Assembly: GCA_947247005.1 (NCBI GenBank)
Contig: OX365948.1
Span: 14,125,455 to 14,189,454 of the forward strand
Source: Spisula solida
Lineage: Eukaryota > Mollusca > Bivalvia > Venerida > Mactridae
DNA length: 64,000 nucleotides
Direction: 5' to 3'
Made by a program: the position numbers and the translations under genes. The notes under the pieces were generated by a model that ran no database searches, was not told the DNA's origin, and worked only from the letters and a program-made list of their open reading frames with translations. Positions 45,901 through 64,000 of this stretch are shown here, piece after piece; within the stretch, counting starts at the first letter, position 1; every line of letters begins with the position of its first letter.

Positions 45901-48900
45901 CTAGTACTTAACACTGCCTGAAACAACCATTATTGGCACTAAGGGGCACCTTACACTGTGTTGAACTACTGTTATTAGCTTTTCGGGGTACCTAACTGTC
46001 TGGAACAACTATATTTGGATCTTAGGGGTACCTAACACTGTCTGGAACAACCTTTATCATTTTTTGACGGTAATTTAAACTGTCTGGAGCAACCAATATT
46101 GACTCTTTGTGGTAGTTAACACTGCCTGTAACAACTATTATGGGCTCTTAGGGGTACCTGATACTGTCTCGAACAACCATTATTGGCTCTTTGGTGCACC
46201 TAACACTGTTTGGAATCGCTATTGTTGGCTCTTTGGTGATTTTACACTGCCTGTAACAACCATTTTTGGCTCTTATGGTTCCATTATACTGTCTGGAACA
46301 ATTATCATTTGCTCTTTGGGGTACAAAACAGGGCATAGGTCAGGCATATCTGACTCTGTAGGATACCGACCATTGCGTGGGGAACACATTACTATGTTAG
46401 TATCCAGCATGTTAGCTCTGTTAGGTGCCTAACACTGCCTTAAACAACCATTATGTACGGTTCACTATATAAAACATCCAATATAGGCTCGTTTGGGGGC
46501 CTAACACTGCAAAGGATAACCATTTCTGACTCTGCGTGGTACCTAACACCGCTTGGAACATGCATGATTACCCCCTTTGGGTACCTAACACTGCAAGGGT
46601 CATCCTTTCATGGCTTTCTTGGCTACTTAACACAGTAGTGCTCAACAAATCATGGCTCTATGAGACACACAACACAGCCTGACACTGCCATTTCTGGCTA
46701 TGTGGGTTACAAACTTTCCCTGGACCAGTCATACCTGTCACTGTGTTGTGCCTATATACTACTAGGTGTTTTAATTTCCTGCCTTGCTGGATACCTAGCT
46801 GCACTGAATACAGCAATTTCATACATAGTATGGTGCAATCAAACTATGTACAACAACTCCTGGTATTAGTGGTAACAAATAGTTCAGGGGTCACTAGTTT
46901 CCGCTTTGTAATATAAATACCACTATCATCTCTTTAGTTTGAATGGTGTCTAAAAGTTTCAATCTTATTCCCATAGAAAGCTTTTGGGTCCAACTTCAAA
47001 AGACAGTTTGATCCACCCCAGTAACTCAACATGCACCCAAAATTTGTTGATCCTGATACAAAATAGCATTCGTCAGGTGTACATAAGTAATGAGACCATG
47101 TCCCTAACAGTCCATACATCAGGTTGACGTAATTGCATAATTGTATGTGTGACTTTCGACTTTAAGAACTGTGCTGAAGTTACTTGTATGGAACATTGTT
47201 ATAACACGATCGTCATAATCACTACGTGTTCTTCACACAAAATGATCGATAAAACTATCTAATATAGTTTTTAGGTAAACCTAGTGTAAAATTATGCCAC
47301 CAAAAATATACCGGTAAGTAGAAAATCGAAGAAATTATTCCGCCAATAGTAAAATTTGAATGTTCTTTTCTGATTGACCTTTGATTTGGCCTTGAATAGG
47401 ATCTAGAAATATTACAGATAGTATCTGATTCATTTGCATGTATTATGATGAATGTTTGTATGAACTTTGATGATTCAGACTTCAACTTGAATTTTAGACA
47501 AAACTTACGGAATTTGGTGGCGGCCATCTTTTACACCATTTTAGATTTAAGGGCATGCACCAAATATTTGCAATTAATACCGACTGTGAATTATCAGTAC
47601 TTTCCTGACATAGTTATTTGTATGCCTAAAAGGGCAGTTTGTGTCCATTATACAAAGACTGAAGTATATAACAAGAAAATATAAGAAATTATCCAGTCAA
47701 AAGTCAAACTTATGTGTCTTCTTTGCCGTTTGACCTTGAAGTTGACCTAGAAGTTGACCTTGGAAATGACCTTGGATTATCACATACACCATCTTGTTTA
47801 GTTGCCATATCATGATTGATACTAATGGGAGCATTTATAATTCAGATTTTAACCAAAATATGTCTAGAGTCATTACTCAAAATTAAATATCATTTTTACT
47901 GAATTGTATCTAGAGCTGAGATATGTGTATACAAAACATCTTATTTCTCCATGGCAATCACAAGTAAATTTCACGAAAATACTAAATAACATAGTTATAC
48001 ATGTACTATGCCAAAAATATATGTGTGCTAAAATGACTATTTGAAGACACTTTCACTACACAATGCAAGACATTATACAGTCAAAATGACATTGTTGGTG
48101 TTTATTGCCATTTGACCTTCAATTTGACCTTGAAATGACCTTGGAATATTACGGACGCCATCTTGCATTTTTACCTAGAGCATAATTAATATTTTTGTGA
48201 ACATTGATGATACAGACTTTAACCAAAACATAATCTAGAGTCATTACTCAAATTTAAATGGCATTTTAGTGAATTGACTGTAAAGCTAATGCTGAAATAT
48301 AGGTGTACAAAACATCTTATTTCTCCATGGCAAACAACCATAAATGTTTTTGAAAACATTTAATATAGTACTTATACAATGTCAAATATAAATTCATGCA
48401 AAAAAGGCTATTTGCAGATAGTATTAGTAAACAATAGAAGAAGTTACCAAGTCAATATGACATATTTTGGCAATTTTTGCCATTTGACCTTGTATTTGAC
48501 CTTGAAAATGACCTTGAACAATTACGGAAATCATCTAGTCCTTTTGTCTAGTTTTAGATGTGAACTTTGATGACACAGTCTTTAAGCTGAAAACATCTAG
48601 AATCATTACACTGAAATAGCATCATACTGAAGTTGATGGCGGCCATCTTGGACGCCATAATGGATTTTAGGGCCCGCACCAAAAAATTGCAATTTATGCT
48701 GGCAATCTGATAATCTCCTGACTGACCCGAAAATTTTGGTATATAACTCTTGCTGTTACTTTTGGGGTCCACCTTCAATGTTAAAATTTTTGCTGCTCTA
48801 CTAAAAGGACAAGTTCGTCATGCCGCGGATACGGGCATTGACTTCCCTGTCGCAATTGAAATAAGGAATTTTTTCTTCTGTCCTGTGTTTGTTGTTAGTT

Positions 48901-49240
48901 AGTGCTGTGCCTTCCCCTTTTTACTCGTTGCCTTCGTAATGTGTTTCAGTGTGTTTTGCTGTTTCTGTAGATTGTTGCTTACAATGTCTGATTTATTAAA
49001 ATATTGTCATAAATATAAGGTTGTCGAGGTTCAGCATCTCTCTGCGACATTTTCATTAAAATTTGGATAACAGACATATGTTTAGATATGTCGTACTAAC
49101 CAGGATTGTCATGTATGTACATTATTGCAGGTGGAATATTTGGTCTGTTTAATGGTGAGATGGATAGAGTGTTAAACAAAGAAGATTCTGTAACAAACGA
49201 TATATCTGAATGGAATAACGAAACAATATCTCCACTCTGA
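36966..49240 (+). CDS. D-cysteine desulfhydrase / ACC deaminase-family PLP enzyme, nine exons
   Basis: Coding exons: 36,966-37,052; 37,392-37,505; 38,211-38,369; 38,890-39,017; 39,200-39,299; 39,659-39,759; 40,660-40,823; 41,093-41,233; 49,131-49,240. Joined, they give 1,104 nt: 367 residues plus TGA, with intron phases matching at every junction. The frame shows fold-type II PLP-enzyme marks: YIKRDDLTG then SGNK with the expected Schiff-base lysine (residue 67), GGGPQSGHCR (about 89-98; the more usual form has SNH, here SGH), the phosphate-binding ATGGTALG (210-217), LDPYYTGK (298-305) and a C-terminal FIHTGGIFGLF. Family members release sulfide, ammonia and pyruvate from D-cysteine or deaminate ACC; which substrate applies cannot be read here. 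The ATG directly follows an acceptor tract (CCTCTTCCTTTTCAG), so a 5'-UTR exon probably lies upstream. Introns 2 and 8 need GC donors (AAG/GCAATC and CAG/GCAAGT). Intron 8 is 7.9 kb and transposon-filled. The gene appears intact. Confidence 0.92.
39892..40015. repeat. Hairpin element in intron 6 of the PLP-enzyme gene
   Basis: Left TTTAGAAATAAAAATCTGTT.. and right ..CGATTCTAAA arms of ~50-55 bp pair, including the fully matched core TTTTGTCGGTGAATA/TATTCACCGACAAAA and CACGG/CCGTG. The loop is ~19 nt. It is likely the same family as 22,235-22,369. Confidence 0.85.
42094..43505. mobile_element. Nested 1.4-kb element with CCCAGTTAGCACTACGG ends
   Basis: The left end CCCAGTTAGCACTACG and right end CGTAGTGCTGACTGGG form the TIR, and both interiors hold GGCCCAGTACTGGC / CATTGCTGGCAGAT minisatellite units in opposite orientation. 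Flanks AGATT and AGATC suggest a ~5-bp target duplication. The other arm of the host element (near 48,230) preserves the uninterrupted sequence. Confidence 0.88.
44465..45480. mobile_element. Nested mariner-type TIR element (1,016 bp)
   Basis: Perfect 28-bp TIRs: the left starts CGTGGGACGTTCAAAAATAA (44,465-44,492) and the right is its exact complement (45,453-45,480). TA flanks both sides. Perfect ends suggest a recent insertion. Internal ORFs on either strand do not resemble a transposase, so it is probably non-autonomous. Confidence 0.92.
45739..46800. repeat. Degenerate ~41-42 bp minisatellite
   Basis: About 25 diverged units with consensus words CCTAACACTGTCTGGAACAA and ATTATTGGCTCTTTGGGGTA; the first unit starts are at 45,739, 45,780 and 45,822. 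It forms the centre of the 7.25-kb inverted-repeat element. The 107-codon ORF here is a repeat by-product. Confidence 0.85.
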
Positions 49241-49354
49241 GTAAAGCGTACATGACTATCCTTCTGCTAGTTGTATGAAACAATATACCACGCACGTGTG
49301 AGAAGTAAAAACGACTCGACTATTGTCAATGTGTTCTTTGATGTTCTGCAAATT

Positions 49355-49360
49355 AATAAA
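49355..49360 (+). terminator. Polyadenylation signal of the PLP-enzyme gene
   Basis: AATAAA 115 bases after the TGA stop, the first in the 3' flank, with TGTTGTGCTGTTGTAGTTG (a GU-rich element) ~15 bases further on. Confidence 0.7.
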
Positions 49361-49385
49361 CTGACAGTATGTTGTGCTGTTGTAG

Positions 49386-51560
49386 TTGTTATTAATTTAC
49401 AAAATGTGTAATTCGTCTTCCGGAGGAAATACATGTTCTACATATATATACACGACATACTAGTTCATTCAGCTTTTCAATAGCTTTTCAAATGTTATTT
49501 ATGTTTTTTGCTCGGCTGGTTAAGCTGAGTGCTGCCTTCCCTGTCTGACTTAATATTAGTTCTGGATACCATAACTAAATGGTCTTTTATTTACACTGAC
49601 GTGTCGGCCTTTTAGTTATGGAATTACCCTCTTCAATAATCAACTGTTTAAGCTTAACGCATAAAATGCATGTTCATTGTTCAAAAATCGCCCAAAAACT
49701 ATAATTTACGTATAAATGTAATATTTTTCAAGTGTTTTGTCTTAAAACAGTCAATGTAACACCTACTGATAATCATATATTGCTTAAAGTTTATTTACTT
49801 CCGCGTTTGATCAGCTTCCGCGGCCATTTTGAATAATTAATTTATCGCAGGTGCGTGCGAGAGCCGTTTTCGAAAAATCCGTTATTTCATGAAACATGGT
49901 CGAAAACGTCTTAAAATTAAATAAAACCTTTAGATATACCTTTACATAAGAAACAAACACGTTATTTTTGCTATAAATCATGTAACTCCCATTTACACAA
50001 ATAAATATTGCAATTTACGCAGCCGACAATCAAAACATTGATCACGTGGTTTGTTTCGGAACACTTTTGTTATAATCCCATTCAAATAAATGGCGATCGT
50101 AAACGAAAACATTGAAATTGGACAGGTTTGAAACAATCGACGGAATTGATGGTATTTCTTGCGAAACTGTTTGTTTTTTGGGATATACTTATAGAATATG
50201 GTCCAATTGATAGGGTATCAATGATTATTTTGTTGAAAACGTGCATTTTGTCATAAAACGAACGCGACTCAATCTCAGTCGTGGACCTGTTGACTTTCAA
50301 AGAACAAACGGCTTTGACGATGAAATGAAATGAATGATCATCGTCAAAGACCTTGGACTAACTTAATATTATCTTAATGAACTGGCCCGCTTCTGTTTCT
50401 TTGTGATTAACTTAAATTAAGTATGTGACCTGTTTTGCTGCTTGCGTTTGCATATAAGTTACAGCAGTGTACGTGTCAGCTTGATAGACGAAGTGGTTGA
50501 TATTACCACAATAACAACGAAAGTTCTTAAAACGACAAATAAACGAAATATTGTTTTCTTAAATATTGAACTAGCGTGATAAACAAATCGACGTACAAAT
50601 TATATTTAATGAGACTGTGCATCAAACCATTCAGGCAAGTTAATTTACATAAAGAAATACCCTCGTGATATGCATATAGTATCTGAAATTGTATGTAAGA
50701 GAAGTTTTAGGATAATTACGAATGGGCTAACGATAACGAGAGGCATGCGCTCACGATGGAATACATCGTTATAAGAAAGCGATTAACAGTGTTAAATTGG
50801 CGGTACCCATTTTAGAAACACGACATAATATCATACAAATAGTTAAAAATGACTTATGTCCACGGTCCGGCGAGAAAAACATTTTCCGTAAAATCCACCA
50901 GCTCGAAAATACGCTCTGATCCCGCCCCTCGGTCTCGCTGACGGTCGGGTATTCGAGGGTTCTGTTTGTTTCAAACCGCTTGAGCGGTGTGGTATTTGTT
51001 AAATATGATGCATTTCATATGTATGTCGATGAAATAAGGATTATTTGGGATAATTGATCCCTTTACGACGAGAAAACAACGCGACGGTAGCAAAACAGAC
51101 GAGTTTCGATGGGGTTTTCCCGAATGTTAGAAGAAACAACAAGTGCTATGAATATTTCAATGCATCACGATCAAAGGACATTTATTGTATGTCATCATAG
51201 GCCAATTCCAAATCTCATAATTTTAAAATGGTGAAGCAAAATTACCTTGCCTCTCTGAACGATCCACATTCCTTGCATTGCTCCGTCGTATTCGATCTCC
51301 ACGCTCGAAAATACGCTTAGACAGGGTGTGAACGTTGTATCGCGCTGCAGTCGTTACCGCGTGACGACGGCAGAAGTGCTATCAACCGTTGAACCGGGAC
51401 AATAGGTAACCCAAGTGACTTTGGACGATCTGTTTTAGATTTGCCACATACAGATCAAATACTTGCAAGATGAATACATGTATGCGTTGGTGTTGGTGAA
51501 CAGCCAATTTGACAGTTCTACTCCACAGATTTTCTGTGCACTCCAAAAGAATACATCAGG
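49386..51560. other. Intergenic spacer, no gene seen
   Basis: Includes a copy of the 31-kb tandem-repeat piece at ~49,510-49,556. Around 50,880-51,000 and 51,250-51,400 the sequence is less AT-rich with several CG dinucleotides. No ORF, RNA gene or transposon end is recognised. Confidence 0.4.
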
Positions 51561-51628
51561 CTGAATGCCGACTCGACTCGACTCAGCGGCTTCGTTATCT
51601 GCAGCCAGTCGCCCGCAGAGCAGTTCGA

Positions 51629-51643
51629 ACGCCCCCTGGCGCA
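51629..51643 (-). promoter_or_regulatory. CTCF-like motif
   Basis: The minus strand reads TGCGCCAGGGGGCGTT, close to the CTCF core (CCAGGGGGCG-type). It sits in a locally GC-rich patch between the PLP-enzyme gene and the retroelement. A single motif is weak evidence. Confidence 0.25.
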
Positions 51644-51780
51644 AGGTAGAGGTCGTGCATTACAGGACTTTTTCAACGAAAACTACGCTCGGACGACTCG
51701 TAATGAGGACTATAGTTATCACTCTTACACCATGTAGTGTTAAGTACTGTGACAGTGTAGTGATGAAACATCAGCTGTAA

Positions 51781-52065
51781 TTTAGCTGAACAATTTATTT
51801 TGCATCTTGATAGTGAGTTGCTTTTTTATAGTTGTGCATTGTATATATGTGTTGACACTTAAGATTTATTGTTAGCACTTGACGGAATATTATTGAATAA
51901 TTCTTGATGTTTGTATTTTGCGTGCTAGCTTAATGTTTAGTTTAGCGCAATGTGTGTGCCACGTTTGTGTAAGAATATTGATGCATGGAAGCGAATAGAC
52001 ACACCAGATTATGTTCTTAGGTGGATTAATGAAGGTGTAACACTACCATTTTTATTATTATCACA
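51781..52065. other. AT-rich spacer, nothing recognised
   Basis: No ORF or repeat boundary is seen. Confidence 0.4.
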
Positions 52066-52250
52066 TGTACCGTATAGCGGGTTATTTCTGCGGGTAGAAA
52101 AATTTGCGATTTGGGCCTAAAATGTGTAGGTTTTATTTCTGCGGTTTTTATTTCTGCGACCTACCAGAAAATCGGGATTTAATTTCTGCGGATTTTAGAA
52201 ACCGGAAGAAATTTCTGCGAATTGTAAATAGCTACCGTATCTAGCTACTA
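52066..52250. mobile_element. MITE-like repeat with ATTTCTGCG words
   Basis: ACCGTATAGCGGGTTATTTC starts the unit, ATTTCTGCG recurs six times within ~140 bp, and the right end GCTACCGTATCTAGC is near. It resembles the widespread GCGGGT(A/T)ATTT-type invertebrate MITEs; this is by memory, not by search. Confidence 0.5.
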
Positions 52251-53060
52251 CGGCATGATCAACAACATGGTAACACTGCTTGTATGATTTTGATTTAATT
52301 GTTATTTTTATACAGAATTCAGCTTTTTTCATTTTAGGAACATCAGAACATTTTCAGCAGTACATGTACCGGTAAACTTAATCATTGCATTTAACGGCAT
52401 GTTATCCTCAACCCAGTCTATTATCTATCGGGGATAGGGTCCTTTCTCTTAAAATATCTCAATATACTCATACCGGGCATTGCTATATCGTTAATACAAT
52501 TATACACACACTTCATTGTTGCAAATTGAACCAGTTGTCAAACTTACATCAACGTGTGTTGAGGGTCAATACCGATATAACACATACCATTCATTATTTG
52601 TTAAACAAACAAGCAAACAAAGACAGTCGATCACTATACGTGCGAAAAATAGGACAGTAACAAAACACTAGAAAGATATAGATCAAAGGTATAAGTCAGG
52701 TCAAGTCAAATACCTTTTATTCTCTCATTTTATGTTTACATGAAAAAAATGAGGTTAACAGAATGTAAAGACATTATCTAGGCTCATGAATATGGTTTTA
52801 CACGCATGAAAATACAAGTACACAAAAAAACCATTGAGTTAGTTACCAATAAATATAAGTATGTTATTAATATTATAACCAAGTATGGTTATTTGTGGAG
52901 AGTCACATATATAATTTGAAATTATTCACGTTTTCATATGCTTACTGAATTGTCGGGGGTGAATTTTATGGTCCAAATAGTTACGATCCAATGGTCACAG
53001 ATAATCCGTGCGATGATGTGTGAACTATAAAACTATCAACACTTTAGTCCTTATATACAC
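52251..53060. other. AT-rich spacer, no gene seen
   Basis: Short ORFs only, with no family resemblance. The right part may already belong to the retroelement's 3' LTR, whose end could not be placed. Confidence 0.35.
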
Positions 53061-53403
53061 ACCCGTTTACACACCGATCGTTAGAATCAAGAATACAATT
53101 CTTTAATTAAGTCGCTAACTAAGACGTTGAGCAAAACCCAGATTTTAACGCTTGTAAACGTGAATTTTGCCTTGAAACAGAATGTATGCTTCTGTAGTGA
53201 TTTATGCACTTTGATATTGGCCTTAGCAGGTGCGCAAGCGGTCCTCGATGCTGATTGGTTAACCAATCTGGCGCTGATTGAGGCCACGTGACCTGAGCTG
53301 GGTAGGCACTTGCTTACCGTGCCCCAAAGAGACGAGACCAGACCTCGACTAGTAGACTAAACGTACAACTACTACAAAGAACAACGGCAATAACACCAAG
53401 GTA

Positions 53404-53421
53404 CTCCACCCTCCCCCCACC
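53404..53421 (-). promoter_or_regulatory. Polypurine tract before the putative 3' LTR
   Basis: The minus strand reads GGTGGGGGGAGGGTGGAG, 26 bases after the TatD stop codon. A purine run at this place is what primes plus-strand synthesis in LTR retroelements, and it supports counting the TatD ORF as part of the element. LTR start TG could be within the next 20 bases. Confidence 0.6.
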
Positions 53422-53446
53422 AAAACAACAGGTTTATGATCGTACA

Positions 53447-55344
53447 TTATATTTTATACAATCTGCGCGCGTTTGCCGCGGACGTTAGGATTACTCTCTC
53501 CCAAGTTTCACCTCGTATCTTACAGACCGTTCTGGCGGTAGTGCCAATTATACTGGGTGTAGAGTACGAGTGTCCTTTACCCACGAAATAGGGAGCGTCT
53601 GATTCAATTAACAGCCTGTTGGATTCCAGAGACGCTAGGGCCTCTTTTTGTACCCGGTTGAATGATGATACCATTCCGCTGAACCCAAAGTGGACATTTG
53701 GAAAGGTGCTAATCCATAGGTCTCTGGTTCTCACTGTGCCATTGAAACAGTGGAGATGTATGCTCTGCTCTCTCGGGATTACTCCCTTGAGATGATACAG
53801 GAGCTCTAGCATCTCCGTTTTTACACCCCTACTATGGAGGACAAGGACTTTGTCTGGTGTCAAGTAGCTAACCGCGCGGTCAAGTACCATATGTTGTTCA
53901 TCCCAGGTTGCGGGGTCACTTGTGTGTTCAAGACCTACCTCTCCCAATGCACAGACTTCTTGGAAATTTAGACACTTATAAAAACGGTCCCAGTCTTCCT
54001 TGGAGTAATTCTTATGCTTAGGGTGGAGGCCAATGGCTACGCCCACTCCCTGAGCTACGAGGTCAGTTACTTCCTCCTGGGATGGGTACGTCTGAGGATC
54101 GCAGAAGACTGCTATACCCCCCGTGACACATACCTCATCGCCTATCACAGGGTTCACTGCCTCAATCGCTTGTTTGTAGGAAGCGGCATATCCCATTTTA
54201 GTCTATCCAGATGAAAGTGACTATCCACTCCCTGGAGCCGCATGGGCAGAGGAACATTAACAGATGGGAAACCCTCCCGTATCTCTTGTTGAGTACCAGG
54301 ATCAAGGCAACCCATAACCACTAGAAATACTCTCCAGTGTGTTAACAGAGCGGGGGAGTTGATACCATCCAGTCGGAATTGTTCCGGCACTGGCAACCCG
54401 AGTTCCTCGCACAACTGGGTCATGGCTATTTCTAGTCCGTTGCCTAGGATTATACCCTTAGGTATCATGCGCAGGTCATCTATGTAACCGGCTAACATGC
54501 CAATATCTAGGCATCCCATAATCCTTGAGGTACACTTGTAGAGAAGGTTGGCTCTAGTACGAACGAACTCGGGAGTGAGTGCGCACCTTGGGTCTAAGAT
54601 GCCAGGAAGATGTACCCCTAGGGCATGCTCCTTGGAGACATATGCCCTACACCCTGGAATTGGGCATATTCTTACATCAATTTTGGGAGACTGGGCGGCC
54701 CCTGGTCTTGGGACTTTTGGTCGGCCACCCATTTCCTGGCTTTCTTTTGCATTACGGACCACAGAGGATGTACGCTTCCTGCGTCCACCCTTGCTGCGGA
54801 CCGAACCAGTACTGTGGGTACCCGAGCCTGACGGAGTCTGCCTTTCCTGGCTGTTCATCGGTCCAGTACCCTTGTTTGCCACTTTACGGGTTGACCTCGT
54901 GACAGAGCCTGGACCCATACCAGTACTTGGAGCAGTACTTACTACAGAAGTTTCTGAGTTTACTTGATCGCCCGTCTTACTAGACCCATTGGTGTACTTC
55001 CTTTTTTGGCGTCTTTGACCTTGTTTGGCGGGAGGTGGGCCAGCTTTACCTACACTGGGTGTAAGGGTCAGCTGCCTGCGGGGTGAAGACCGAAGGGTAT
55101 ACCTTAGAGTATTCGGTTCAGTCGATTCTTGCACCACCGCACCGGGCTTATCTGGTTGTGGAACACACTGTAAAATGGTTTCACCAACCACTTGGGTACG
55201 TACCACTAGATGAGGTGCAACCTGCTCAGTGGGTTCTTCAACCACCAGACAGGAGGATTTGTCGGCATGATATACGTTGCCATCATCTGACAAGGGGATG
55301 CAGCCTCCTTCTTGCATAGTGCGCCTACAGCCACACCCTCGCAT
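53447..55344 (-). pseudogene. Finger-TatD ORF of the retroelement, split by a one-base frame offset
   Basis: Two overlapping minus-strand frames make one protein. The first (55,344-54,154; 396 codons from its first ATG) has a basic, Ser/Thr/Pro-rich, probably disordered part (residues ~80-220), a C2H2-like finger (C227, C232, H240, H245), a helical region, and near its end the TatD entry motif VDSHFHLDRL (H376, H378). The second (54,196-53,447; 249 codons) continues the TatD barrel: GEVGLE (E86), LHSRG (H121), LHCFNG (H149) and ESDAPYF (D200). So all expected metal ligands (HxH, E, H, H, D) exist but are divided between frames that differ by -1 at about 54,190. TatD enzymes are metal-dependent nucleases; animals have TATDN relatives. 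This could be a decayed copy, a programmed shift, or an overlapping start at the ATG at 54,196. The start of the first frame is uncertain: it probably connects to the upstream ORF by another frame change. Confidence 0.8.
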
Positions 55345-55841
55345 TCCCCCGGAGTATGAACACTCCCCTTAGAGGGTGCGTCCACCTCCATGGACTCCTG
55401 CGTGGGAGCGCTAGATAGGGCTTTATTTCCCTCATCAGCGGTTACCCTTCCAATATTCGGGTTTTGCTTAAGTCTTATGTCCTTTGAGGGACCCCTTGGT
55501 GATACATTTCGGGTAGTCGGACGCGACGTCGCCTTGACGAACATAATGTTCTCGTTTATCCAGGCGAGATCGTGGAATTGTAGCTGTTGGGCCTCGGTGG
55601 CCACTTGCCTAAGCCAGCTACGAGAACTCGGTCCTCGAGACTTAGCCAACCGCACCTGGCTCATTAGGGCTTCGACCTGGCTGTTCGGCGTTGCTGCCTG
55701 TAACATCAGCTGCCGGACCATGTTCCTGCTTGGCAACAGTTTCTTGGCCGCTGAATGGTCTACGATCTCTTGGATTGACAAAGACATACTGAAAAGGACA
55801 TAACAGGTAAGGTCTTGACTGGGTATTAATTCAACGCTCAC
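55206..55841 (-). pseudogene. Retroelement ORF upstream of the finger-TatD frame, function unknown
   Basis: An open frame of ~211 codons whose first codon at 55,841 is GTG; the first ATG is at about 55,787 (MSLSIQEIVDHSAAKK). An acceptor-like CCTTTTCAG directly precedes that ATG and a strong donor-like GAG/GTGAGC lies ~58 bases before it, so a very short intron or a spliced mRNA is possible. The N-terminal part is helical and charged, with no recognised domain. It overlaps the finger-TatD frame for 139 bases. There the protein-like character passes from this frame to the other, which suggests a single long ORF broken by a frameshift near 55,320. Confidence 0.55.
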
Positions 55842-55869
55842 CTCACATTATACCTTTCAAAGTTTTCAT

Positions 55870-56034
55870 TTACGGACTAAGTCCACGCTCGCGGCACCTT
55901 CTGCACCAGTATTTGTCTATTTCTAGTGCATCGGATGCGGTGATGTTAACGCAGGAACCATGGAACCATTCATCACATCCATCGCATTGGATCATGAATC
56001 GGCCCTGCCACGGTTTGCGACAAAAGCAATAGAG
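55870..56034 (-). pseudogene. PHD finger following the integrase
   Basis: The minus strand reads LYCFCRKPWQGRFMIQCDGC and continues EWFHGSC..WCRRC to a TAA at 55,870-55,872. This is a complete C4HC3 zinc ligand set: CxC, CxxC, H, C, CxxC. The frame is -1 relative to the integrase, whose stop at 56,091 lies just before an acidic Asp run that leads into the finger; a single base offset would join them. PHD fingers bind histone H3 tails. Aromatic positions before the first Cys, in KPW and in EWFHG fit the H3K4me3-reader type seen in PHF8/KDM7-like fingers (inference). Integrase-linked chromatin readers are known for other Ty3/gypsy elements, mostly chromodomains. The finger is too short to stand out as an ORF by itself. 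Confidence 0.85.
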
Positions 56035-56090
56035 CTTTCCATCGTCATCATCGTCGTCGCTGTCTTGGGTAGGAGAAGCCAGCCAGGTGG

Positions 56091-57002
56091 TTATCCACTT
56101 TGGTATAACTTCTTCATTCTATCGTGGTTTACCACGAAGATGGATTTGTGCAGCTTTACACGATACAGTGAAGCGGACAGCTTTTTGACTACGACAGCCG
56201 GACCTTTCCAAGGGGGACACAGTTTTTTGCATTTCCCTTTCTTGGCAGCAGTGTCAAGGAGGTAGACTAAGTCATTCTCCTTGTAGGTGCGTTCTACGGT
56301 CCGTACATCGTAGTCCCGCTTCATTCTCTTTAGCGACGACTTGAGGGTGCTCCTCGCTGAATTATGAGCCGCCTGAATGTTTTTCATCAGGGTGGCCACA
56401 TATTCGTCTGCTGTCACGGACTTTGTGGGGATGCCTGGGAACATGAGGTATGCAGGGGTGTTAACCTCTCTCCCCAGCATCAGTTTGTTGGCCGTAAAGC
56501 CCGTTTTTCTGTTCACAGCCCTTCTCATTGCGCCTGCTATTTGGGGAAGGTGTACATCCCATTGGTCTTGGGAATCGGCTATATAACACCTCACAGCATC
56601 CATTAGTGTGCGATTAAACCTCTCCACTTGGCCATTTGCCGATGGACGGTAGGGTGTTGTCCTAGCCTTTTGAATCTCTAGTACTTCACACATTGATGTG
56701 AAGAGCCTTGATTCAAAGTTGCGGCCAGAGGCACACATTCAACCCATTTCGTAAACTGGTCGACCATCATGAGTACGTACTCATTACCCTTAGCCGTCGT
56801 AGGAAGGGGGCCCATAAAGTCCAGATGGACTTTCCATTGGTGCTCCCGCTTGGTACTTTTGCATAGGGTTGAGCCCATACTGGCCAGCCTTTTTGTTTGA
56901 GTTGCATACGGCACATGTTGAAATATAGTTGGCTATATCGTCACCCATGCCTCGCCGGTGATTGAATACAGCCAGGTGGACCTGTGTATCCGTATCAAGC
57001 AA
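56091..57002 (-). pseudogene. Ty3/gypsy-type integrase, internally deleted and frameshifted
   Basis: Three minus-strand pieces. (1) 57,002 to ~56,835: the end of the zinc domain, with CAVC and downstream NSNKK; the His pair is replaced by unrelated sequence. (2) ~56,840-56,720, another frame: HLDFMGPLP with the first catalytic Asp, then MMVDQFTKWVECVP. (3) 56,738-56,091: GRNFESRLF, PYRPSANGQVERFN with the catalytic Glu (residue 39 of this frame), a long C-terminal part and a GPY/F-like WKGP (177-180). Pieces 2 and 3 meet directly at VP/GRNF, so the stretch that normally carries the second catalytic Asp is missing. With the frameshift between 1 and 2, this copy cannot make an active integrase. 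Antisense ORFs on the plus strand are shadows. Confidence 0.9.
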
Positions 57003-57051
57003 CCATCTGTTTTAAGCGTCCAATGTTTTTAAGTGATTGAATACAGCCAGC
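56959..57051. repeat. 75-bp spaced direct repeat at the retroelement break
   Basis: GTGATTGAATACAGCCAG occurs at 56,959-56,976, inside the integrase reading, and again at 57,034-57,051 outside it. The repeat lies exactly where integrase homology ends and marks a rearrangement or duplication at the 5' truncation point. Confidence 0.75.
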
Positions 57052-58279
57052 TTGAACCGTGATCGTGCTACACTCAATGTGTAACTTGATTTACTGATTT
57101 ACATTGCAACAATTAAAAAATATAGTTTAAACTTTTACAAAAATGCATGGATCAATTTATTACAGTGTACTTTCAAGCAAATAGCAAAAGATTATTTATT
57201 TATCACGATAATACATTATGTTTCAATGCTTGCCATTTTTCTACAATACAATTAATAGAATAGAATGTGAATTCAATTTGTGTTTTATTTAATAACAATA
57301 TGTCATTTACTTGTAATCCTAAAAGGCAGATATAGGCAATTTTCAAGAAAAGTGTAAATCTTATACTCTGACAAATGTTGGACTTCTTCATTGTTATTTC
57401 TCACCTGCGCGAATTATAATTAATTAACTACTAGAAGTGACATTCCCCAATGTAGTGTATGTTTATTTTATTATTCAATTCCACATAATTTATATTACTA
57501 CAACAGTCTGGTTTAAACTGAAAAGCCCTCGACCAGTCAAAAGAATCACAATTACATAGATATTGGCAGACAAGGTATACAAAAATGATAAATTTCATTT
57601 ACATCGACATTTATAAGTCATAATGATTTAGTTAGGTTCTTGTTAATTTACTACAAGATAACCATTGATGCAAAGCATCAAAGGGCGCCATTAAAGAAGT
57701 TCTGAAAACTTTAGACATATATGATTGATCTTTGTAAGAAACAGCAGGTGTTGTATTTTTCAAAATATAATGGCAAAAGTGAAATACAAAAAATATATTT
57801 TCATCTTGAATATTAAGGATCTTAGTTTGTACCTTAGTCCTCTTGTACAAGCATGTTTTATAAATATACGCATGCTATTCATTTAATATTATCAAATGGC
57901 AAACAATGCAGATGCACATCATTTACAACTCATTTCAGTGTGATGTGATGTGTAGTAACTTCATAATGCTAATTTCAGTTTATTGGCAATTAGTATAATG
58001 TAATAGTCAAATGGTGTATTGTGTGTAAAGTTTGTATAGCTATATATCCGATAGCAATTCAGTATGTGCAAATTCCATATTTGGTGCATACTATTTCATT
58101 GGTTGTATAAATTTAACAAACAAAGCTGAGTGTAAAGGCATTGCTATCAATTAAAAATTTTCTATGTGATAAGTTAAAAATAACAAGAATAAAATACAAC
58201 AGGTATATGAACTTTGTTTTATTTATAAACAGAAAACTATTAACAATACAAGACATATGTGTTGCATAACCATGACACA
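57052..58279. other. AT-rich spacer, no gene seen
   Basis: Very AT-rich, with short ORFs only. No TIRs, RNA genes or exon candidates are recognised. Confidence 0.45.
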
Positions 58280-58640
58280 TAGAACGTGCCAAATCTGTAT
58301 AGACAACCAAATGTATTTGTTTAGAAGCAACATTATTTAAATCTTTATAGACTCTAGAATCAATTGCTTTCTAGACACTAAATCTATACAGATGTCAAGT
58401 TTATTCATGAGTCTATACGCTTAGATGTATTCAAATACGTATAGCAAGAATCGAGAACAATTGATGTAGAAGATGAGTCTACCAAGACTCAAAAACTCTA
58501 CCGAGGACCAGTGAGTTACCAGCTAATTCAGATCTGTATAGAAACCATTTTAAGTATCTAGATACCTGTAAAAGCAAATGCGTTCAAATCTGTATAGTCA
58601 CATCTCTCCATTGGCAGAACGACTAAAATCTATATCTAAG
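58280..58640. repeat. Degenerate repeat of ATCTGTATAGAC words
   Basis: AAATCTGTATAGAC and variants (AATCTTTATAGACTC, its inverse GAGTCTATACG, ATCTGTATAGAAACC) recur at irregular 40-60 bp intervals on both strands. Confidence 0.55.
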
Positions 58641-58794
58641 ACAAGTTTTAGCTATTGCAAAAATAGTTTCCAGGGCATATCCATTTACCATGAAATGTTT
58701 TAAGATATAGCATTTCAATGTAGACTGCAGGGTCGGTCAAAGTTGTGCATTAAAAAGCTGGATAGCTATAATGTCGCTGATATGCAGTTCGTAC

Positions 58795-58834
58795 GGGTCA
58801 TTCAATTTATATCGCATTGTATATTGAATGACCC
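58795..58834. repeat. Short hairpin
   Basis: GGGTCATTCAATTTATAT pairs with ATATTGAATGACCC around a loop of about 8 nt; outer stem perfect. Confidence 0.85.
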
Positions 58835-58841
58835 TCAATTA

Positions 58842-58915
58842 AACAAATAGTCGGTATCAATTTTTCATTTGTTACTTTGTACGTGGTTTTCAAAATTGGT
58901 ACCGACTATTTTGTT
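58842..58915. repeat. Second hairpin, 7 bp after the first
   Basis: AACAAATAGTCGGTATCAAT and ATTGGTACCGACTATTTTGTT pair with two differences around a ~30-nt loop. Confidence 0.85.
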
Positions 58916-59344
58916 TCATTGAAGAATCTTTTCAGAGAAACCAGTACAATTTGGTAGATACATGTATTTATAGAAACTCTAATATTTACCTCGTCGAACG
59001 CAATTTAAGAGCCGTGCCAAGTAACGGTTTTTCCTGTTCTAAAAATAGACGGTGTACCCAGTGTATTTACTGATATGAAGCCGCTGTTCGTAAGCGATAC
59101 GCTGATTGGTTGTTTATTTGCTGTGGACACTGGGTGTAATGCAGAGCAATGAATTGTGGGGAGTAGGATATGTAAGATTACGTAAGGTCTGTTGGTCAGA
59201 CTGGTACCTTCATGTTAATGAGATATTTGGCCGGGGCGACACAATTAGCTTTATGCAAATAAGTAATTTCGCCGGCCGGATCAGCGAGGTTCGTAAGGGG
59301 AATTTATGTATGTTAATCAAATAAAGTTATATTATATAGTTAAA

Positions 59345-59452
59345 TTGAGGCTCCACGCGGGAAATTATTTATGAACTTCTTACAAATTGAGGCTCAACAC
59401 GGGGAAGTGTTCATAAACTTCATACAAGTTGAGGCTCACCATGGTGGAACTG
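59345..59452. repeat. ~50-bp tandem repeat, 2.5 copies
   Basis: TTGAGGCTCCACGCGGG, TTGAGGCTCAACACGGGG and TTGAGGCTCACCATGGTGG head successive units, with TTCATAAACTTCATACAA-type tails. Confidence 0.75.
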
Positions 59453-59489
59453 TCTTCCAGCTCATTATAACAAAGTCCTCCAATACAGA

Positions 59490-59509
59490 CGCCCCGATCC
59501 ATCGGGGCG
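59490..59509. repeat. GC-rich perfect hairpin
   Basis: CGCCCCGAT-CC-ATCGGGGCG: 9-bp arms with a 2-nt gap, unusual in this AT-rich neighbourhood. Confidence 0.85.
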
Positions 59510-59689
59510 CCAACAATATACACTGGGTAGAATAACTCAAGACTTATTCAATGCAGTTATTCAACAAATGATACATCAATACATACAAGTACATATTAGT
59601 CAATATAAACGGCAATTCAATTGTATTTAAACATATCATTAATAATATATACATGTACATGAATATTGTCCGCAGCTGTTACCATTTTT

Positions 59690-60110
59690 GTGTGGCGTAA
59701 CGCCACACAATGTAATTACCACTTTTCAGCTTACGACCAATTTAACGCATTAGGCCTCGGCAAATAAATAGTTCTATGATTTGAACAATATTACAAGCAT
59801 GCAACACAGGTTACACGTATCATTGGACCTGATTTGTTTACATTACCAACATTTACTTATATTAAGACCAACAATTATATCAGACTTATATTTTTAGAGG
59901 ATATTTATAGCAAATCATTCCGCAACGGACTATATTTTTACTACCAAAGAATGTTCTCACTGGTGGCGGGAATCTAAAATAGTTAAAATCGTATACTGTA
60001 ACGTATGTAAATCACTCCGCCGCTGCACATTGCAGACGATGACCTAATTATGTAGTATACAAACATTGATGCTATATATAGCTGGTGGGGGGAACTGAAA
60101 TAGTTCTACG
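59690..60110. repeat. Segmental duplicate, copy 1 (uninterrupted)
   Basis: It opens with the palindrome GTGTGGCGTAACGCCACAC (59,691-59,709). TACCACTTTTCAGCTTACGA, ATGATTTGAACAATAT and TTCCGCAACGGACTATATTT recur in the copy at 62,235-63,330. It contains ATATTAAGACCAAC (59,869-59,882), the pre-insertion form of the site occupied in copy 2. Confidence 0.85.
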
Positions 60111-62234
60111 TACATATCGATCGGTCGATTAACAATGTTACCGCGGTAAGCGTTAAAGGCACTAGTCAATTTCTACCCTGCTTTATATAAGACCTCATAA
60201 TTTTCGTATCTATTATCCGATTTTGAATATTAAAGCTTGTAATGAAGCAGAGATATATGTCTCTCTTTAAGACAACATTCAACACGATACCCTAAGTATT
60301 AAAGCCACGGCGACGAGTAAGAATCCGTTCCGTGTAAAGTTTAAAATATCCCGTTTTATACCAAATAAAAATTCAATCAACGGTCGAAAATCATCAATTA
60401 TTAATTTAATATTCGATCGATTTTGTTCGTTAAAGCTTGTTTTAAAAGCTAATACTTTTAGGTTTTTTAAAGTGTAAAACTTGTTTTTAAAGCATTAATC
60501 GGCCGATCGATATGTGTGAGCGACACAATGTTTACCCCTTTCACATACATTAATACAGAGTGTCATATACATTTAATTAACATGCGTGGTCATACGGAGA
60601 ATAAACAGTCACTTATCTTGACACTGGTCGAATTCTCCAAGTCGTTAAAAATGGTATTTGTAAATATCCCTTCATTAATGCTCAGCATAGTTACTTAAGT
60701 AAGTTCCAGGTAACTGCTGGTTCTCTTGGTGTCTTTAACAGCCCAACTGTTCGAGTAAGGGTTGGCTTATCAGAACTGTGACATAAAATTATGATACAAC
60801 CTGGATTCGATATTGGATTTAATGGCATCAGTACGCCACACAACAGTACTTTCAGTGCTTTGATTACTTGGGGGATTCCCCCAAGTATTGTTACATACCA
60901 ACTTCAGAAATCACTACGATTTTACCAATGTAATTTCTCCACGACCAATTCATCCGAGCAAAAAACGAGTTCCAGCTAATCTAAACCAAAATCATAATGT
61001 TCAATCATTTTTAAAATATTTGTCCATAGCAATGGAATTATTTTTTTATTTCTTTGTATTGCGAGAAATTTTGGAATGTTTCTTCTGTGAGTTAATGTGT
61101 TTGTGCGAATAAATTCCTACGCGCTGTAAAATGACTAATGGTTTTTGAGGGTTGATAAAAATGTCGCTGTTACAGTACCTGGTTAAGCAGACGAAATTTA
61201 CACTGTTTGGTTTCATAACGTTCATATTACAGTTTAGCAACAAACTCCTGCTATAATGTATTTATTTTCACTATTTACAATATTTTGCATTGATAAATAG
61301 TATTGATCGACGTTTCATCCATTAAATTTACCTCAGATCTTCGGCTTAATATTTTGCGTCTATCTTAAGAACAACCCTTTTCCAAGCGGTGTTGTTTACA
61401 CACTTCGCGCCGAGATTCGAGACCATATAGTTTCGTCCCCTTTATGAATCGTTCGCGCTATTCGCACCATATTCGGTTCGTTTGTAGCTAGAGTTATGGA
61501 ATTTTGACTAAGTGCAGTTTAAGTTGTTATTATTAATTTTTTACGACTATTCATCCCCTATCCAATTACTTATATTATTTTTGTTTGCTACCGTCAAACA
61601 TTATTTATGCATATTCATGAAATTACCATTTACTGTTATTCTTAGTCTTTTTAATATTTTTCTCAGCTAAAACTACGTATTTCAGCCCCCTTTATAGTTG
61701 AAACTAATTCATTGTGTTTTTAATGGTCGGATTGTCTAAATGGGTTCGTTAGATGAATTTGAATGAGTCAGCTGTCATCGATATTTCTGAAAAGTTTTCA
61801 CAATATTTACACTTATTATTCCAATACCATTTAACGTAATTTTTAATAGATTACCAAGATTTGCGTTATCCCCCAAGTAACAGTACTTCAGTACTTTGAC
61901 TAATTAATGCGAAATAAACCAACCCATATAATACAAAATCTTCGATCTAAAAGTCATAATCTATCAAACATGAAATATATAGCAATTTTATAACCCCTCA
62001 GGCGAATGTATATGCCGCATGCTGAGACAATCGCAGCGGGAAGGGTCATAAAACAATTAACCGGGTTATTACATAATCTGTATCGGTAAAAAACAGAAAG
62101 AAAAAATGGTATATTTTTCCAAAAACATCAAAAAGGACCAAAATCTTTTTAAAATAAATCTTTACAAATTACATCATTGGAAAGATAATTTATTTTCCTA
62201 AACGAAGCCGTTCGCATACAGATGACGTGACTTT
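60111..62234. other. AT-rich spacer, no gene seen
   Basis: A 21-bp perfect palindrome ACTTGGGGGATTCCCCCAAGT lies at 60,866-60,886, preceded by CAACAGTACTTTCAGTGC. An inverted relative, CCCCCAAGTAACAGTACTTC, lies at ~61,871, so 60.84-61.9 kb may be an inverted-repeat element of ~1 kb. No coding region is supported. Confidence 0.4.
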
Positions 62235-63330
62235 TGTATGGCGTAACCACACAATGATATTACCACTTTTCAGCTTACGACCAATTTAACGACTTTAGGC
62301 AAGATAGTCCGCCGCAAATAAATAGTTCTATGATTTGAACAATATAACAAGCATGCAACACAGGTTACACGTATCATTGGACCTGATTTGTTTATATTAC
62401 CAACATTTACTTATATTAAGGTATCGGAGGATAATTTATAGTGAGATTGAGCATGTTTTTTTAAAAAGCATTTTATTCTTAAAATTGAAATGTGTTGGGT
62501 ACAGTAAACATAGTATTATGATGCACTACATGTAATCTTGATGTTCCACCCAAAATAAATATTGATACAGTGAATTTATTGAAGCATAACAGCATTTTTA
62601 TTGCAAATCTTACTCGTTTACAAACAAAGTCAACATGGCATTAAGAGTCAGAGTTTGTTGTCGGGGACATAGCCAATAGTATAAGGAACAAACTCTTGCA
62701 AAGAAATAATTATGAAACAAATTCATGAACTTGTATCATGCAAAAAATCAATGATCATCAATGACCTTGCAAACCGAAAGTAGAAATTTGGCAATGTTTC
62801 TTGAATATCTTTCAAAGTATACATTTTTCAGTCTTAAACTAAGTAAGAGTTTGTTCCCTAGAGTTATATTGTAAGAATGATATACATTTTATCAAGTACC
62901 GCTGGGCAGTTTTTGTGTTTGCGAACGAGCAAGATTTACAATGAAAATGCTGTCATACTTCAATAAATTCACTTTATTACTATTTATTTTTTGTTTAACT
63001 TCAAGGGTATATGTAGTGCATCATAATGCTATGCTTACTGTACCCATCAAATATCAATTTTAAGAATAAAATGCATTTGAAAAAAGCATGAACCCACCCA
63101 CTATAGATCATACCCCATGTCCTTAAGACCAACAATTATATCAGACTTTTATTTTTAGAGGATATTTATAGCAAATCATTCCGCACGGACTATATTTCTA
63201 CTACCAAAAAATGTTTTCACTGGTGGCGGGAACCCACGGTTACTGTTACGTATGTAAATCACTCCGCCGCTGAACATTGCATGTTTTCACTGGTGGCGGA
63301 AACTGAAATCGTTCTACGTAAAGTAGTTCC
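62235..63330. repeat. Segmental duplicate, copy 2 (interrupted by a foldback element)
   Basis: 62,235-62,420 and 63,123-63,330 match copy 1 (59,690-60,110), with small indels and loss of the opening palindrome symmetry (GGCGTAACCACACAATG). The 702 bp between are inserted. Confidence 0.85.
62421..63122. mobile_element. 702-bp foldback element with TTAAG target duplication
   Basis: TTAAG precedes (62,416-62,420) and follows (63,123-63,127) the insert, and occurs once in the empty paralogous site at 59,873-59,877. The two halves are inverted copies over ~300 bp each: AAGCATTTTATTCTTAAAAT pairs with ATTTTAAGAATAAAATGCAT, and GTGAATTTATTGAAG with CTTCAATAAATTCAC. No ORF is present. Fragments of the same family lie at 28,385-28,408 and 29,206-29,262. 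Confidence 0.92.
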
Positions 63331-63529
63331 AAAGCGTTTGCATGTAAAAACCGCCAATAACTAAAACTATCTTTGAAATAAACTAAGTAGCTTTCTTCTT
63401 TATGAAAGGAGATTTAAATCACTCCGCCGTTGTTTGTAGACGAGGACATAATTATGCGGTGTGCTACTAAAAGCAGTTCTAGGCCGTCTATTGCGGTCGA
63501 ATGCCGTCTATTGCAGTCGATAATAAAAC

Positions 63530-64000
63530 CGAAATATCTGAAGAAAAGTATGTAATATGATGAATTTATAGTCCAAACACTGTAAGATGGCCAATCTTCG
63601 GGAGAGAACTTGGGTTGGACTAAACAAGAGTCGAAATCTAGATAAAGGCCGTCGAAGCGAAAGATAACCGTTTTAAAGCAATTAAACATTATAATATTGT
63701 CACACGTGCCCAGATATATGTATTTACAACTAATTTAAATTGAAATACATAAAACAATATGTAAAATGATGACTTTATAGCCAAAACTACTACGACGACA
63801 AATCCAAGGGAGAGAACATGGGTTGGCTTTAACAAGAGTCGAATCATGACAAAAGCTGTCGAAGCGAAAAATAAACGTTTTTAGCCAATTAAATGTTATA
63901 TCATTTTCACATATGTCTAGATATATTTATTTACAACTAATTTTAATCGAAATACCTAAATCAATATGAAATATGGTCACTTTATAACTCAAAATGCTAC
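63530..64000. repeat. ~208-bp tandem repeat running off the right edge
   Basis: GATGAATTTATAG, GATGACTTTATAG and GGTCACTTTATAA occur at ~63,559, 63,768 and 63,975. The two complete units share GGGAGAGAACTTGGGTTGG / GGGAGAGAACATGGGTTGG and AACAAGAGTCGAA. The 91-codon minus-strand ORF is a by-product. Confidence 0.8.

What the first reader, a model, noticed from the sequence alone, without database searches (positions are those of the whole stretch)
53404..57002. One retroelement reading joins an integrase, a PHD finger and a TatD-family nuclease
The minus strand carries, in order and closely spaced, a Ty3/gypsy integrase, a complete PHD finger, a C2H2-like finger and a TatD metallonuclease with all metal ligands, then a polypurine tract. 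I know of no standard Ty3/gypsy layout with a TatD domain as the 3'-most module. If intact relatives exist, the element would combine its own chromatin reader with a cellular DNA-repair or exonuclease fold, which might process cDNA ends or host DNA. The raised GC of the whole block supports common origin.
Basis: partly seen in the sequence, partly recalled or inferred. Interest (0 to 1): 0.88.

Follow-up and report, generated by a model that had tools for sequence, protein, structure and literature searches.

The report
Jumping gene with reader and nuclease
The window holds a decayed copy of an LTR retrotransposon from what is probably a clam genome; intact relatives in the same genome encode a PHD finger, predicted to read histone marks, at the end of the integrase and, as a separate last gene inside the LTRs, a TatD-family nuclease that likely processes the element's own nucleic acids, a combination for which our literature searches found no earlier description.

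Summary
The window copy (53394-56960, minus strand) is broken: truncated, with a 91-bp deletion and frame breaks, and followed by an LTR fragment in the opposite orientation. Its genome (G000, 932 Mb) holds full-length relatives: LTR, gag, protease, RT, RNase H, integrase, PHD, then a separate ORF3 (747-823 aa in four families) with a C2H2-like finger and a TatD nuclease, then LTR. LTR pairs bracket TatD in 8 of 9 copies examined (seven pairs 99.6-100% identical over 236-368 bp, one seen for 173 bp); 5 of 7 readable copies have perfect 4-bp target duplications. Of 50 integrase+PHD matches scored genome-wide, 48 have TatD 0.9-1.7 kb downstream on the same strand, against 0 of 34 PHD-less integrases in long frames. 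The PHD resembles H3K4me3 readers (CXXC1, PHF2, BPTF). TatD ligands are kept between ORF3 proteins 30-32% identical. One family also carries a captured Tpt1/KptA domain inside pol, between RNase H and integrase. Function is inferred, not tested; pairing in other species is untested. I rate it a new variant of Ty3/gypsy retrotransposon.

The parts
56091..56960 (-). Integrase remnant: end of H2C2 region, part of catalytic core, C-terminal domain; 91-bp deletion at 56726/56727 and frame breaks
   Evidence: Weak Pfam rve, rve_3, Integrase_p58_C; blastn to intact L031 5464-5699 and 5791 onward, 96-97%
55894..56034 (-). PHD finger at the integrase C-terminus, complete
   Evidence: Pfam PHD 4.8e-12; position; homologous PHD of L031 closest to CXXC1, PHF2, BPTF, PHF8
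53447..55787 (-). ORF3 from its first ATG (806 aa stop to stop in intact copies), here split over three frames (55206-55847, 54154-55368, 53447-54202)
   Evidence: intact counterpart L031:6683-9103
54610..54666 (-). C2H2-like zinc finger (C-x4-C-x7-H-x4-H) before TatD
   Evidence: the four ligands invariant in four ORF3 proteins
53447..54225 (-). TatD-family metallonuclease domain, all ligand motifs kept, one frame break at about 54154-54202
   Evidence: Pfam 9.2e-34; PDB matches YcfH, TatD; motif positions
53406..53421 (-). Purine-rich run, not the tract adjoining the 3' LTR in intact copies
53193..53415 (+). Fragment of the family-A LTR in the orientation opposite to the coding block
   Evidence: blastn 85% over 53193-53339 to the family-A LTR; 53237-53415 matches the LTR in L063 at 89%

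Best explanation
This is a dead copy of a Ty3/gypsy LTR retrotransposon lineage, intact elsewhere in the same genome, that carries a PHD finger as the tail of its integrase and a TatD-family nuclease as a separate third gene inside the LTRs, where the PHD would likely steer integration to H3K4me3-marked chromatin and the nuclease likely trims or clears the element's own RNA or cDNA ends. Shown here by sequence: domain order, LTR pairs around TatD, target duplications, co-occurrence of PHD and TatD, conserved active-site residues. Inferred from families: PHD reads H3K4me3 and acts as the chromodomain of chromoviruses is thought to do, as a targeting tail of integrase; TatD acts as a 3'-5' exonuclease, AP endonuclease or RNA:DNA-hybrid nuclease during reverse transcription or before strand transfer. 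ORF3 sits where env sits in retroviruses. In families A-D its frame opens 1-23 bases behind the pol stop and its first ATG lies 24-83 bases behind it, so it is likely made from a spliced message or by reinitiation (in family C, read-through of the pol stop is also possible). One family adds Tpt1 inside pol; that enzyme would remove 2'-phosphates or cap 5'-phosphate ends with ADP-ribose.
For: Intact copies: L031 and L032 have gag, pol (1806 aa) and ORF3 (806 aa) open; L033 has one stop in pol. Domains gag, RT, RNase H, H2C2, rve, PHD, then TatD in ORF3 in families A-D; protease in A-C, only a weak match in D. Integrase+PHD in E, F, G, and a cut-off PHD in L053. LTR pairs around TatD in 8 of 9 copies. 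Perfect 4-bp duplications in 5 of 7 readable copies. 48 of 50 integrase+PHD matches have TatD 935-1715 bp downstream, against 0 of 34 PHD-less integrases in frames of at least 1000 aa; Fisher p 1.7e-21, not corrected for relatedness. TatD ligands invariant across ORF3 proteins 30-32% identical to L031. TatD dN/dS 0.26-0.36 between the window copy and L002-L008, and 0.15-0.30 in family E, on few changes. PHD of L031 matches CXXC1 5.4e-17 and PHF2 3.3e-15. TatD/TATDN activities from passages of PMC12709183.
Against: No function was tested. The window copy itself is dead. Family B (L034) shows no LTR pair in the stretches fetched, and its pol is in two frames. C and G lack a perfect 4-bp duplication. 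16 of 62 TatD matches of at least 600 bp lack an integrase match upstream. Only the best 150 of 370 integrase-PHD candidates were scored, and the 50 include near-identical copies; independent lineages are about nine by my grouping. TatD dN/dS reaches 0.47 in one family-D pair and 0.38-0.74 where L009 or L011 is compared. Whether TatD neighbours an integrase in other species could not be tested: no such locus was found in viral or prokaryote collections, and the protein database gives no context.
Confidence: 0.72

Rival explanations
1. The TatD protein (ORF3) acts on the host rather than on the element: it would degrade host R-loops, small-RNA precursors or repair intermediates to counter silencing or ease germline expression.
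For: Two of the annotated relatives are named TATDN2 (P0016, P0017); human TATDN2 is described as an RNA 3' exonuclease/endonuclease that resolves R-loops, and medaka tatdn2 acts in germ cells (passages of PMC12709183). ORF3 is a separate protein with a long variable N-terminus, as expected of a factor acting in trans.
Against: No direct evidence. The strict pairing with PHD-tailed integrase fits a role tied to integration equally well or better.
Confidence: 0.25
2. TatD is a passenger: a captured host gene copied along without function.
For: Broken and ORF3-only copies exist (L013, L063). TatD dN/dS is 0.38-0.74 in comparisons with L009 or L011.
Against: Metal ligands and the finger are kept between ORF3 proteins 30-32% identical; open frames in at least seven families; dN/dS 0.26-0.36 between the window copy and L002-L008 and 0.15-0.30 in family E; 48 of 50 pairing.
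Confidence: 0.05
3. The junction of integrase, PHD and TatD in the window is a chance neighbourhood of a retroelement and a host TATDN gene.
For: The window copy is broken and no LTR pair was found in window 44000-64000; the family-A LTR matches the window at one place only.
Against: Same order inside LTR pairs at other places and same neighbourhood at 48 places; the element TatDs are split from the host C12 TATDN gene and bacteria (100/99).
Confidence: 0.01

Closest known systems
Ty3/gypsy (Metaviridae) LTR retrotransposons of bivalves, e.g. the C-clade with Steamer
   Same: gag-PR-RT-RH-IN order, short LTRs, PBS next to the 5' LTR; family E has the PBS TGGTGTCAGAAG that passages of PMC8905726 give for Steamer
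   Different: Steamer elements are about 4.5-4.9 kb, and intact copies have a single ORF (passages seen); these are about 9.7 to at least 13.3 kb, with a PHD tail on integrase and a TatD ORF3. Clade by RT tree was not tested.
Chromoviruses (chromodomain-tailed integrase; features recalled)
   Same: A histone-reading type of module at the integrase C-terminus, presumed to target integration
   Different: PHD of the H3K4me3-reader type instead of a chromodomain; third ORF with TatD
Ginger1 transposons (Gypsy-integrase-like transposases with extra C-terminal domains)
   Same: One member, Ginger1-9_HM, has Ulp1 and PHD added to a Gypsy-type integrase (passages of PMC2836005)
   Different: DNA transposons with terminal inverted repeats; no gag, RT or LTR; TatD does not occur in that paper's text
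TatD/TATDN nucleases
   Same: Family match and all ligand motifs
   Different: Element TatDs are split from the host C12 gene and bacteria and carry a C2H2-like finger and a long N-terminus
Tpt1/KptA/TRPT1 RNA 2'-phosphotransferase
   Same: Pfam 4.1e-57, Arg-His-Arg-Arg tetrad kept
   Different: Sits inside a retroelement pol between RNase H and integrase; none of the 37 protein hits lists an RT or integrase domain

Membership tests
Ty3/gypsy LTR retrotransposon | Identical LTR pair bracketing the coding region | tested here: met
   8 of 9 copies (three A, C, D, E, F, G; not B); for F only 173 bp of the pair was seen
Ty3/gypsy LTR retrotransposon | Short target-site duplication | tested here: met
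   4 bp perfect in 5 of 7 readable copies (CATG, AAAC, ATTC, GCGT, TGTT); not in C and G
Ty3/gypsy LTR retrotransposon | Domain order gag, PR, RT, RNase H, integrase | tested here: met
   families A-C; in D the protease match is weak (RVP 0.099), cut by my piece border
Ty3/gypsy LTR retrotransposon | Primer binding site after 5' LTR and purine tract before 3' LTR | tested here: met
   TGGTGGCAGC... and GGGAGGAG in family A, likewise C, D, E; tRNA-Leu named only by PMC8905726 for the family-E type, otherwise recalled
Ty3/gypsy LTR retrotransposon | Place in an RT tree with named Ty3/gypsy clades | not tested
   no reference set of named elements was at hand
Chromovirus | Chromodomain at integrase C-terminus | tested here: not met
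   Pfam finds PHD and lists no chromodomain in the seven families scanned
H3K4me3-reading PHD | Sequence closest to known H3K4me3 readers with aromatic/Met cage positions kept | tested here: met
   (L031); Y/F, W/Y, M, W positions kept in families A-G; reader status and cage assignment recalled
H3K4me3-reading PHD | Binding to H3K4me3 | not testable with these tools
   needs peptide binding
TatD nuclease | HxH, Glu, two His, Asp ligands | tested here: met
   invariant in A-D; which residues are ligands is recalled
TatD nuclease | Nuclease activity | not testable with these tools
   needs enzyme assay
Tpt1/KptA (family A only) | Arg-His-Arg-Arg tetrad and family match | tested here: met
   tetrad defined in passages of PMC6333775 and PMC6582358
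Ginger transposon | Terminal inverted repeats, no RT | tested here: not met
   LTRs, RT present

The most novel reading that the evidence does not exclude
A clade of LTR retrotransposons carries its own integration compass and nucleic-acid end-processing kit: an H3K4me3-reading integrase tail nearly always paired with a TatD nuclease, and in one family also a captured host Tpt1 enzyme inside pol that caps 5'-phosphate ends with ADP-ribose or removes 2'-phosphates, so that capping and trimming of cDNA or RNA ends are done by the element and not by the host.
Probability: 0.3. Interest if true: 0.92.

Novelty: new variant of a known kind. Interest (0 to 1): 0.82.

Why it matters
The best-known histone-reading tails of Ty3/gypsy integrases are chromodomains, presumed to lead to silent chromatin (recalled). 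A PHD of the H3K4me3 type would lead to active promoters, and its near-perfect pairing with a nuclease gene (48 of 50 against 0 of 34) suggests that the two evolved as one module. It would give natural tests of how a retroelement protects or trims its cDNA ends and chooses sites. As far as our searches show, it is also the first case of an RNA-repair ADP-ribosyltransferase built into pol. It may explain some mollusc genes annotated TATDN2 (two) as retroelement genes.

Tried and rejected
Tried without result: protein search with the 404-aa middle ORF of the window copy (none). IMG/VR scans with TatD and with integrase-PHD and prokaryote contigs with integrase-PHD: no relatives. The TatD scan of prokaryote contigs gave 92 relatives, 80 kept, all under records titled as bacteria or archaea, at 21-33% identity; 7 of the 80 were used as outgroup, with P0034 and P0039 (a first attempt failed on an empty row, L029, which was left out; rows P0012, P0019 and L024 were dropped). 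AlphaFold of the C2H2/middle domain gave mean pLDDT 53, so no fold search was made. LTR pair of family B: not found in the pieces fetched. Rejected: chance junction; TatD as host gene next door; the purine run as the LTR-adjoining tract. Tpt1 in families B, C, D: no Pfam match in the linker, and the Tpt1 family search of the genome rings at 11 places only. Literature: ten searches over open-licence PMC papers; judged from the titles and abstract starts of the rows listed (20 of 33, 15 of 58, 15 of 69, all rows in the others), none is about TatD, Tpt1 or an H3K4me3-type PHD in an LTR retrotransposon. Passages of six papers were seen, none read whole. Repbase and subscription papers were not searched.
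Full report
What is in the window. On the minus strand between 56960 and 53394 lie remnants of a Ty3/gypsy integrase, a complete PHD finger, a C2H2-like finger and a TatD nuclease domain. The block is GC-rich (0.476-0.530) in a 0.278-0.436 neighbourhood. The copy is dead: it starts inside the integrase, lacks 91 bp, and ORF3 is split over three frames. It is 96-97% identical to an intact copy, L031, over L031:5464-9156. No LTR pair was found in 44000-64000, and the family-A LTR matches the window only behind TatD, as a fragment in the opposite orientation, 53193-53415.

The intact relatives. The source genome (932 Mb, 36 contigs, unnamed) gave 114 places for the TatD query, with open frames of 671-922 aa in several groups, and 109 places for the Pfam family. 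That it is a clam is an inference: its own long-Tpt1 gene groups with that of Mya (92/91). I fetched 10-kb stretches of six copies: family A at C6, C8 and C13; B at C4; C at C18; D at C6, and parts of others afterwards. Families A-D carry a gag (CCHC knuckle in A, B and C; PNMA match in all four), RT, RNase H, H2C2, rve and a C-terminal PHD, then ORF3 with TatD; a retroviral-type protease matches in A-C and only weakly in D, where my piece border cuts it. In L033 one stop interrupts pol; in L034 pol is in two overlapping frames; in L036 gag and pol are one frame. Families E, F and G have integrase plus PHD by Pfam; in L053 the PHD match is partial and below cut-off because the fetched piece ends there. 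In A-D the ORF3 frame opens 1-23 bases behind the pol stop and its first ATG lies 24-83 bases behind it, in another frame in A, B and D and in the same frame in C; no overlap exists, so frameshifting is not the way it is made.

Where the LTRs are. LTR pairs were found in 8 of 9 copies: A three times (254-258 bp), C (254), D (236), E (368), F (at least 173, cut by the fetched piece) and G (242); not in B. Identity is 99.6% in one A copy and 100% in the others over what was seen. In these 8, TatD is inside. In family A, 1.4 kb of 3' sequence with a tandem repeat lies between TatD and the 3' LTR. Perfect 4-bp target duplications: CATG, AAAC, ATTC (A), GCGT (D), TGTT (E); imperfect in C (TTAG/TTAC), none in G, unreadable in F; read by me from the flanks printed. 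Identical LTRs mean recent insertion.

How strict the pairing is. The integrase C-terminus plus PHD of family B was searched in the genome: 370 candidates, the best 150 scored. Fifty matches cover both parts; 48 have TatD on the same strand 935-1715 bp downstream. The exceptions are C4:47099610, not looked into, and C11:26370611, where no ORF3 match was found in the 6 kb behind it. Nineteen partial PHD matches (9 with TatD) and 12 others were not used. Of 69 matches that end before the PHD, 4 have TatD; three of these, the window copy among them, have their PHD listed as a separate match, C2:21849818 has not. Of the 34 PHD-less matches in frames of at least 1000 aa, none has TatD (Fisher p 1.7e-21, not corrected for relatedness). 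The TatD list used there held 124 places: all 114 and 10 of those added. In reverse, 46 of 62 TatD matches of at least 600 bp have the integrase/PHD upstream; 16 have not, among them ORF3-only and solitary copies (L063, L156).

Selection and ancestry. Four ORF3 proteins, 30-32% identical to L031, keep every TatD ligand and the four finger ligands, while their integrase-PHD ends are 62-64% identical. TatD dN/dS is 0.26-0.36 between the window copy and L002-L008 and 0.15-0.30 in family E, on 1-10 nonsynonymous changes; in family D it is 0-0.47, and comparisons with L009 or L011 give 0.38-0.74. A midpoint-rooted tree of 31 rows splits (100/99) a group of 21 from the host C12 TATDN gene with bacteria. 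The 21 hold families A-E, L009, the exon-like C16 match of this genome, and proteins of Dreissena (P0011), Mytilus (P0017, P0023) and unnamed sources; P0011 with P0009 is next to family B (96/89) and P0001 next to family A (93/79). The element-type TatD is therefore likely older than this species, though whether it neighbours an integrase in other species is untested. A figure legend of the giant-squid genome paper lists a TATDN2 gene and a pogo-derived gene among the non-Hox genes in the Hox cluster (passage of PMC6962438); whether that TATDN2 is of the element type was not tested.

Tpt1. In family A, pol carries a Tpt1/KptA domain (4.1e-57) between RNase H and integrase. It keeps the Arg-His-Arg-Arg tetrad (alignment; tetrad from passages of PMC6333775 and PMC6582358). 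The genome rings at 11 places: 5 in pol frames of 1529-1806 aa at family-A loci, one in a 1433-aa frame, 3 in short frames of 192-285 aa (two with a stop), 2 short matches that look like exons of two host genes. Of the 7 family-A integrase+PHD matches, 6 have Tpt1; the copy at C13:11888497 has none. Linkers B, C and D share the flanks but not the domain. In a tree the element Tpt1 sits with the host's own long-Tpt1 gene (93/34, weak; that row is 48% filled) and with that of Mya (92/91), on a branch of 0.78: likely a capture from a clam host, not very recent. dN/dS between L031 and the short-frame C14 copy is about 0.3. None of the 37 protein hits of this domain (687-1516 aa) lists an RT or integrase domain.

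Mechanism. Shown: architecture and co-inheritance. Inferred: the PHD is of the H3K4me3-reading type. Best solved relatives of the L031 PHD are CXXC1 (5.4e-17), PHF2 (3.3e-15), BPTF and PHF8, and the Y/F, W/Y, M, W cage positions (recalled) are kept in families A-G. As a tail of integrase it would bring the complex to active chromatin. E. coli TatD is a 3'-5' exonuclease on ssDNA and RNA, TATDN1 and TATDN3 are AP endonucleases, and TATDN2 acts on R-loops (passages of PMC12709183). In the element this would serve to remove primer or hybrid remnants, trim non-templated 3' ends, or act on host RNA:DNA hybrids at the target. TRPT1 can ADP-ribosylate 5'-phosphorylated ssRNA and ssDNA (passages of PMC6582358), so the Tpt1 of family A may protect ends. 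The pairing of PHD and TatD suggests that both serve the same step, most simply integration at open chromatin.

Place among known things. It is a Ty3/gypsy element by order, LTRs, duplications and primer site; its place in an RT tree was not tested. It is not a chromovirus (no chromodomain found) and not a Ginger transposon (LTRs, RT). Ten literature searches over open-licence PMC papers listed no paper on TatD or Tpt1 in an LTR retrotransposon; the nearest is a Ginger transposase with PHD. Verdict: real, recent, intact elsewhere in this genome, a new variant of a known kind.

Noticed in passing
L031:4309-4822 (G000:C6:50859352-50859865): Tpt1/KptA RNA 2'-phosphotransferase domain inside a retrotransposon pol between RNase H and integrase, tetrad intact, found only in family A.
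   Followed up: yes
P0061, P0071, P0072, P0074 (Mytilus proteins): Host-like Tpt1 proteins of Mytilus carry a retroviral-type aspartic protease domain upstream of Tpt1: a possible retroelement-host gene fusion or a gene-model artefact.
   Followed up: no
L063:6624-9792 (G000:C14): A compact derivative: ORF3 (aa 150-806) between two family-A LTRs that both point against it; L013 is a similar ORF3-only copy with LTR pieces in sense orientation. The window copy, with its opposite LTR fragment, resembles L063.
   Followed up: partly
G000:C5:54663745-54665124 and 54678373-54679752 (L006, L007): Two copies 14.6 kb apart in which ORF3 runs into the TatD start and then folds back: TatD and its 3' sequence follow inverted.
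   Followed up: partly
L156:1352-4117 (G000:C1): A solitary 922-aa frame with ORF3-like middle and TatD end and a repetitive stretch, no integrase or RT match within about 4.9 kb upstream: possibly a domesticated ORF3.
   Followed up: partly
G000:C16:2467583-2805350: Five exon-like matches to the N-terminal half of TatD spread over 340 kb; one (L154) falls on a long branch among the element-type TatDs: possibly a host gene family derived from the element.
   Followed up: partly
window 56958-57050: An 18-bp direct repeat CTGGCTGTATTCAATCAC at 57033-57050 and 56958-56975 at the truncated 5' border of the block.
   Followed up: no
window 45730-46664: Array of a 42-bp unit, 14 overlapping copies of an 84-bp reference listed.
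   Followed up: no
window 59703-60034 and 62247-63281: Several short direct repeats (41-116 bp, 94-98% identical) spaced 2.5 and 3.3 kb apart and an inverted pair at 62416-63126, possibly another mobile element.
   Followed up: no
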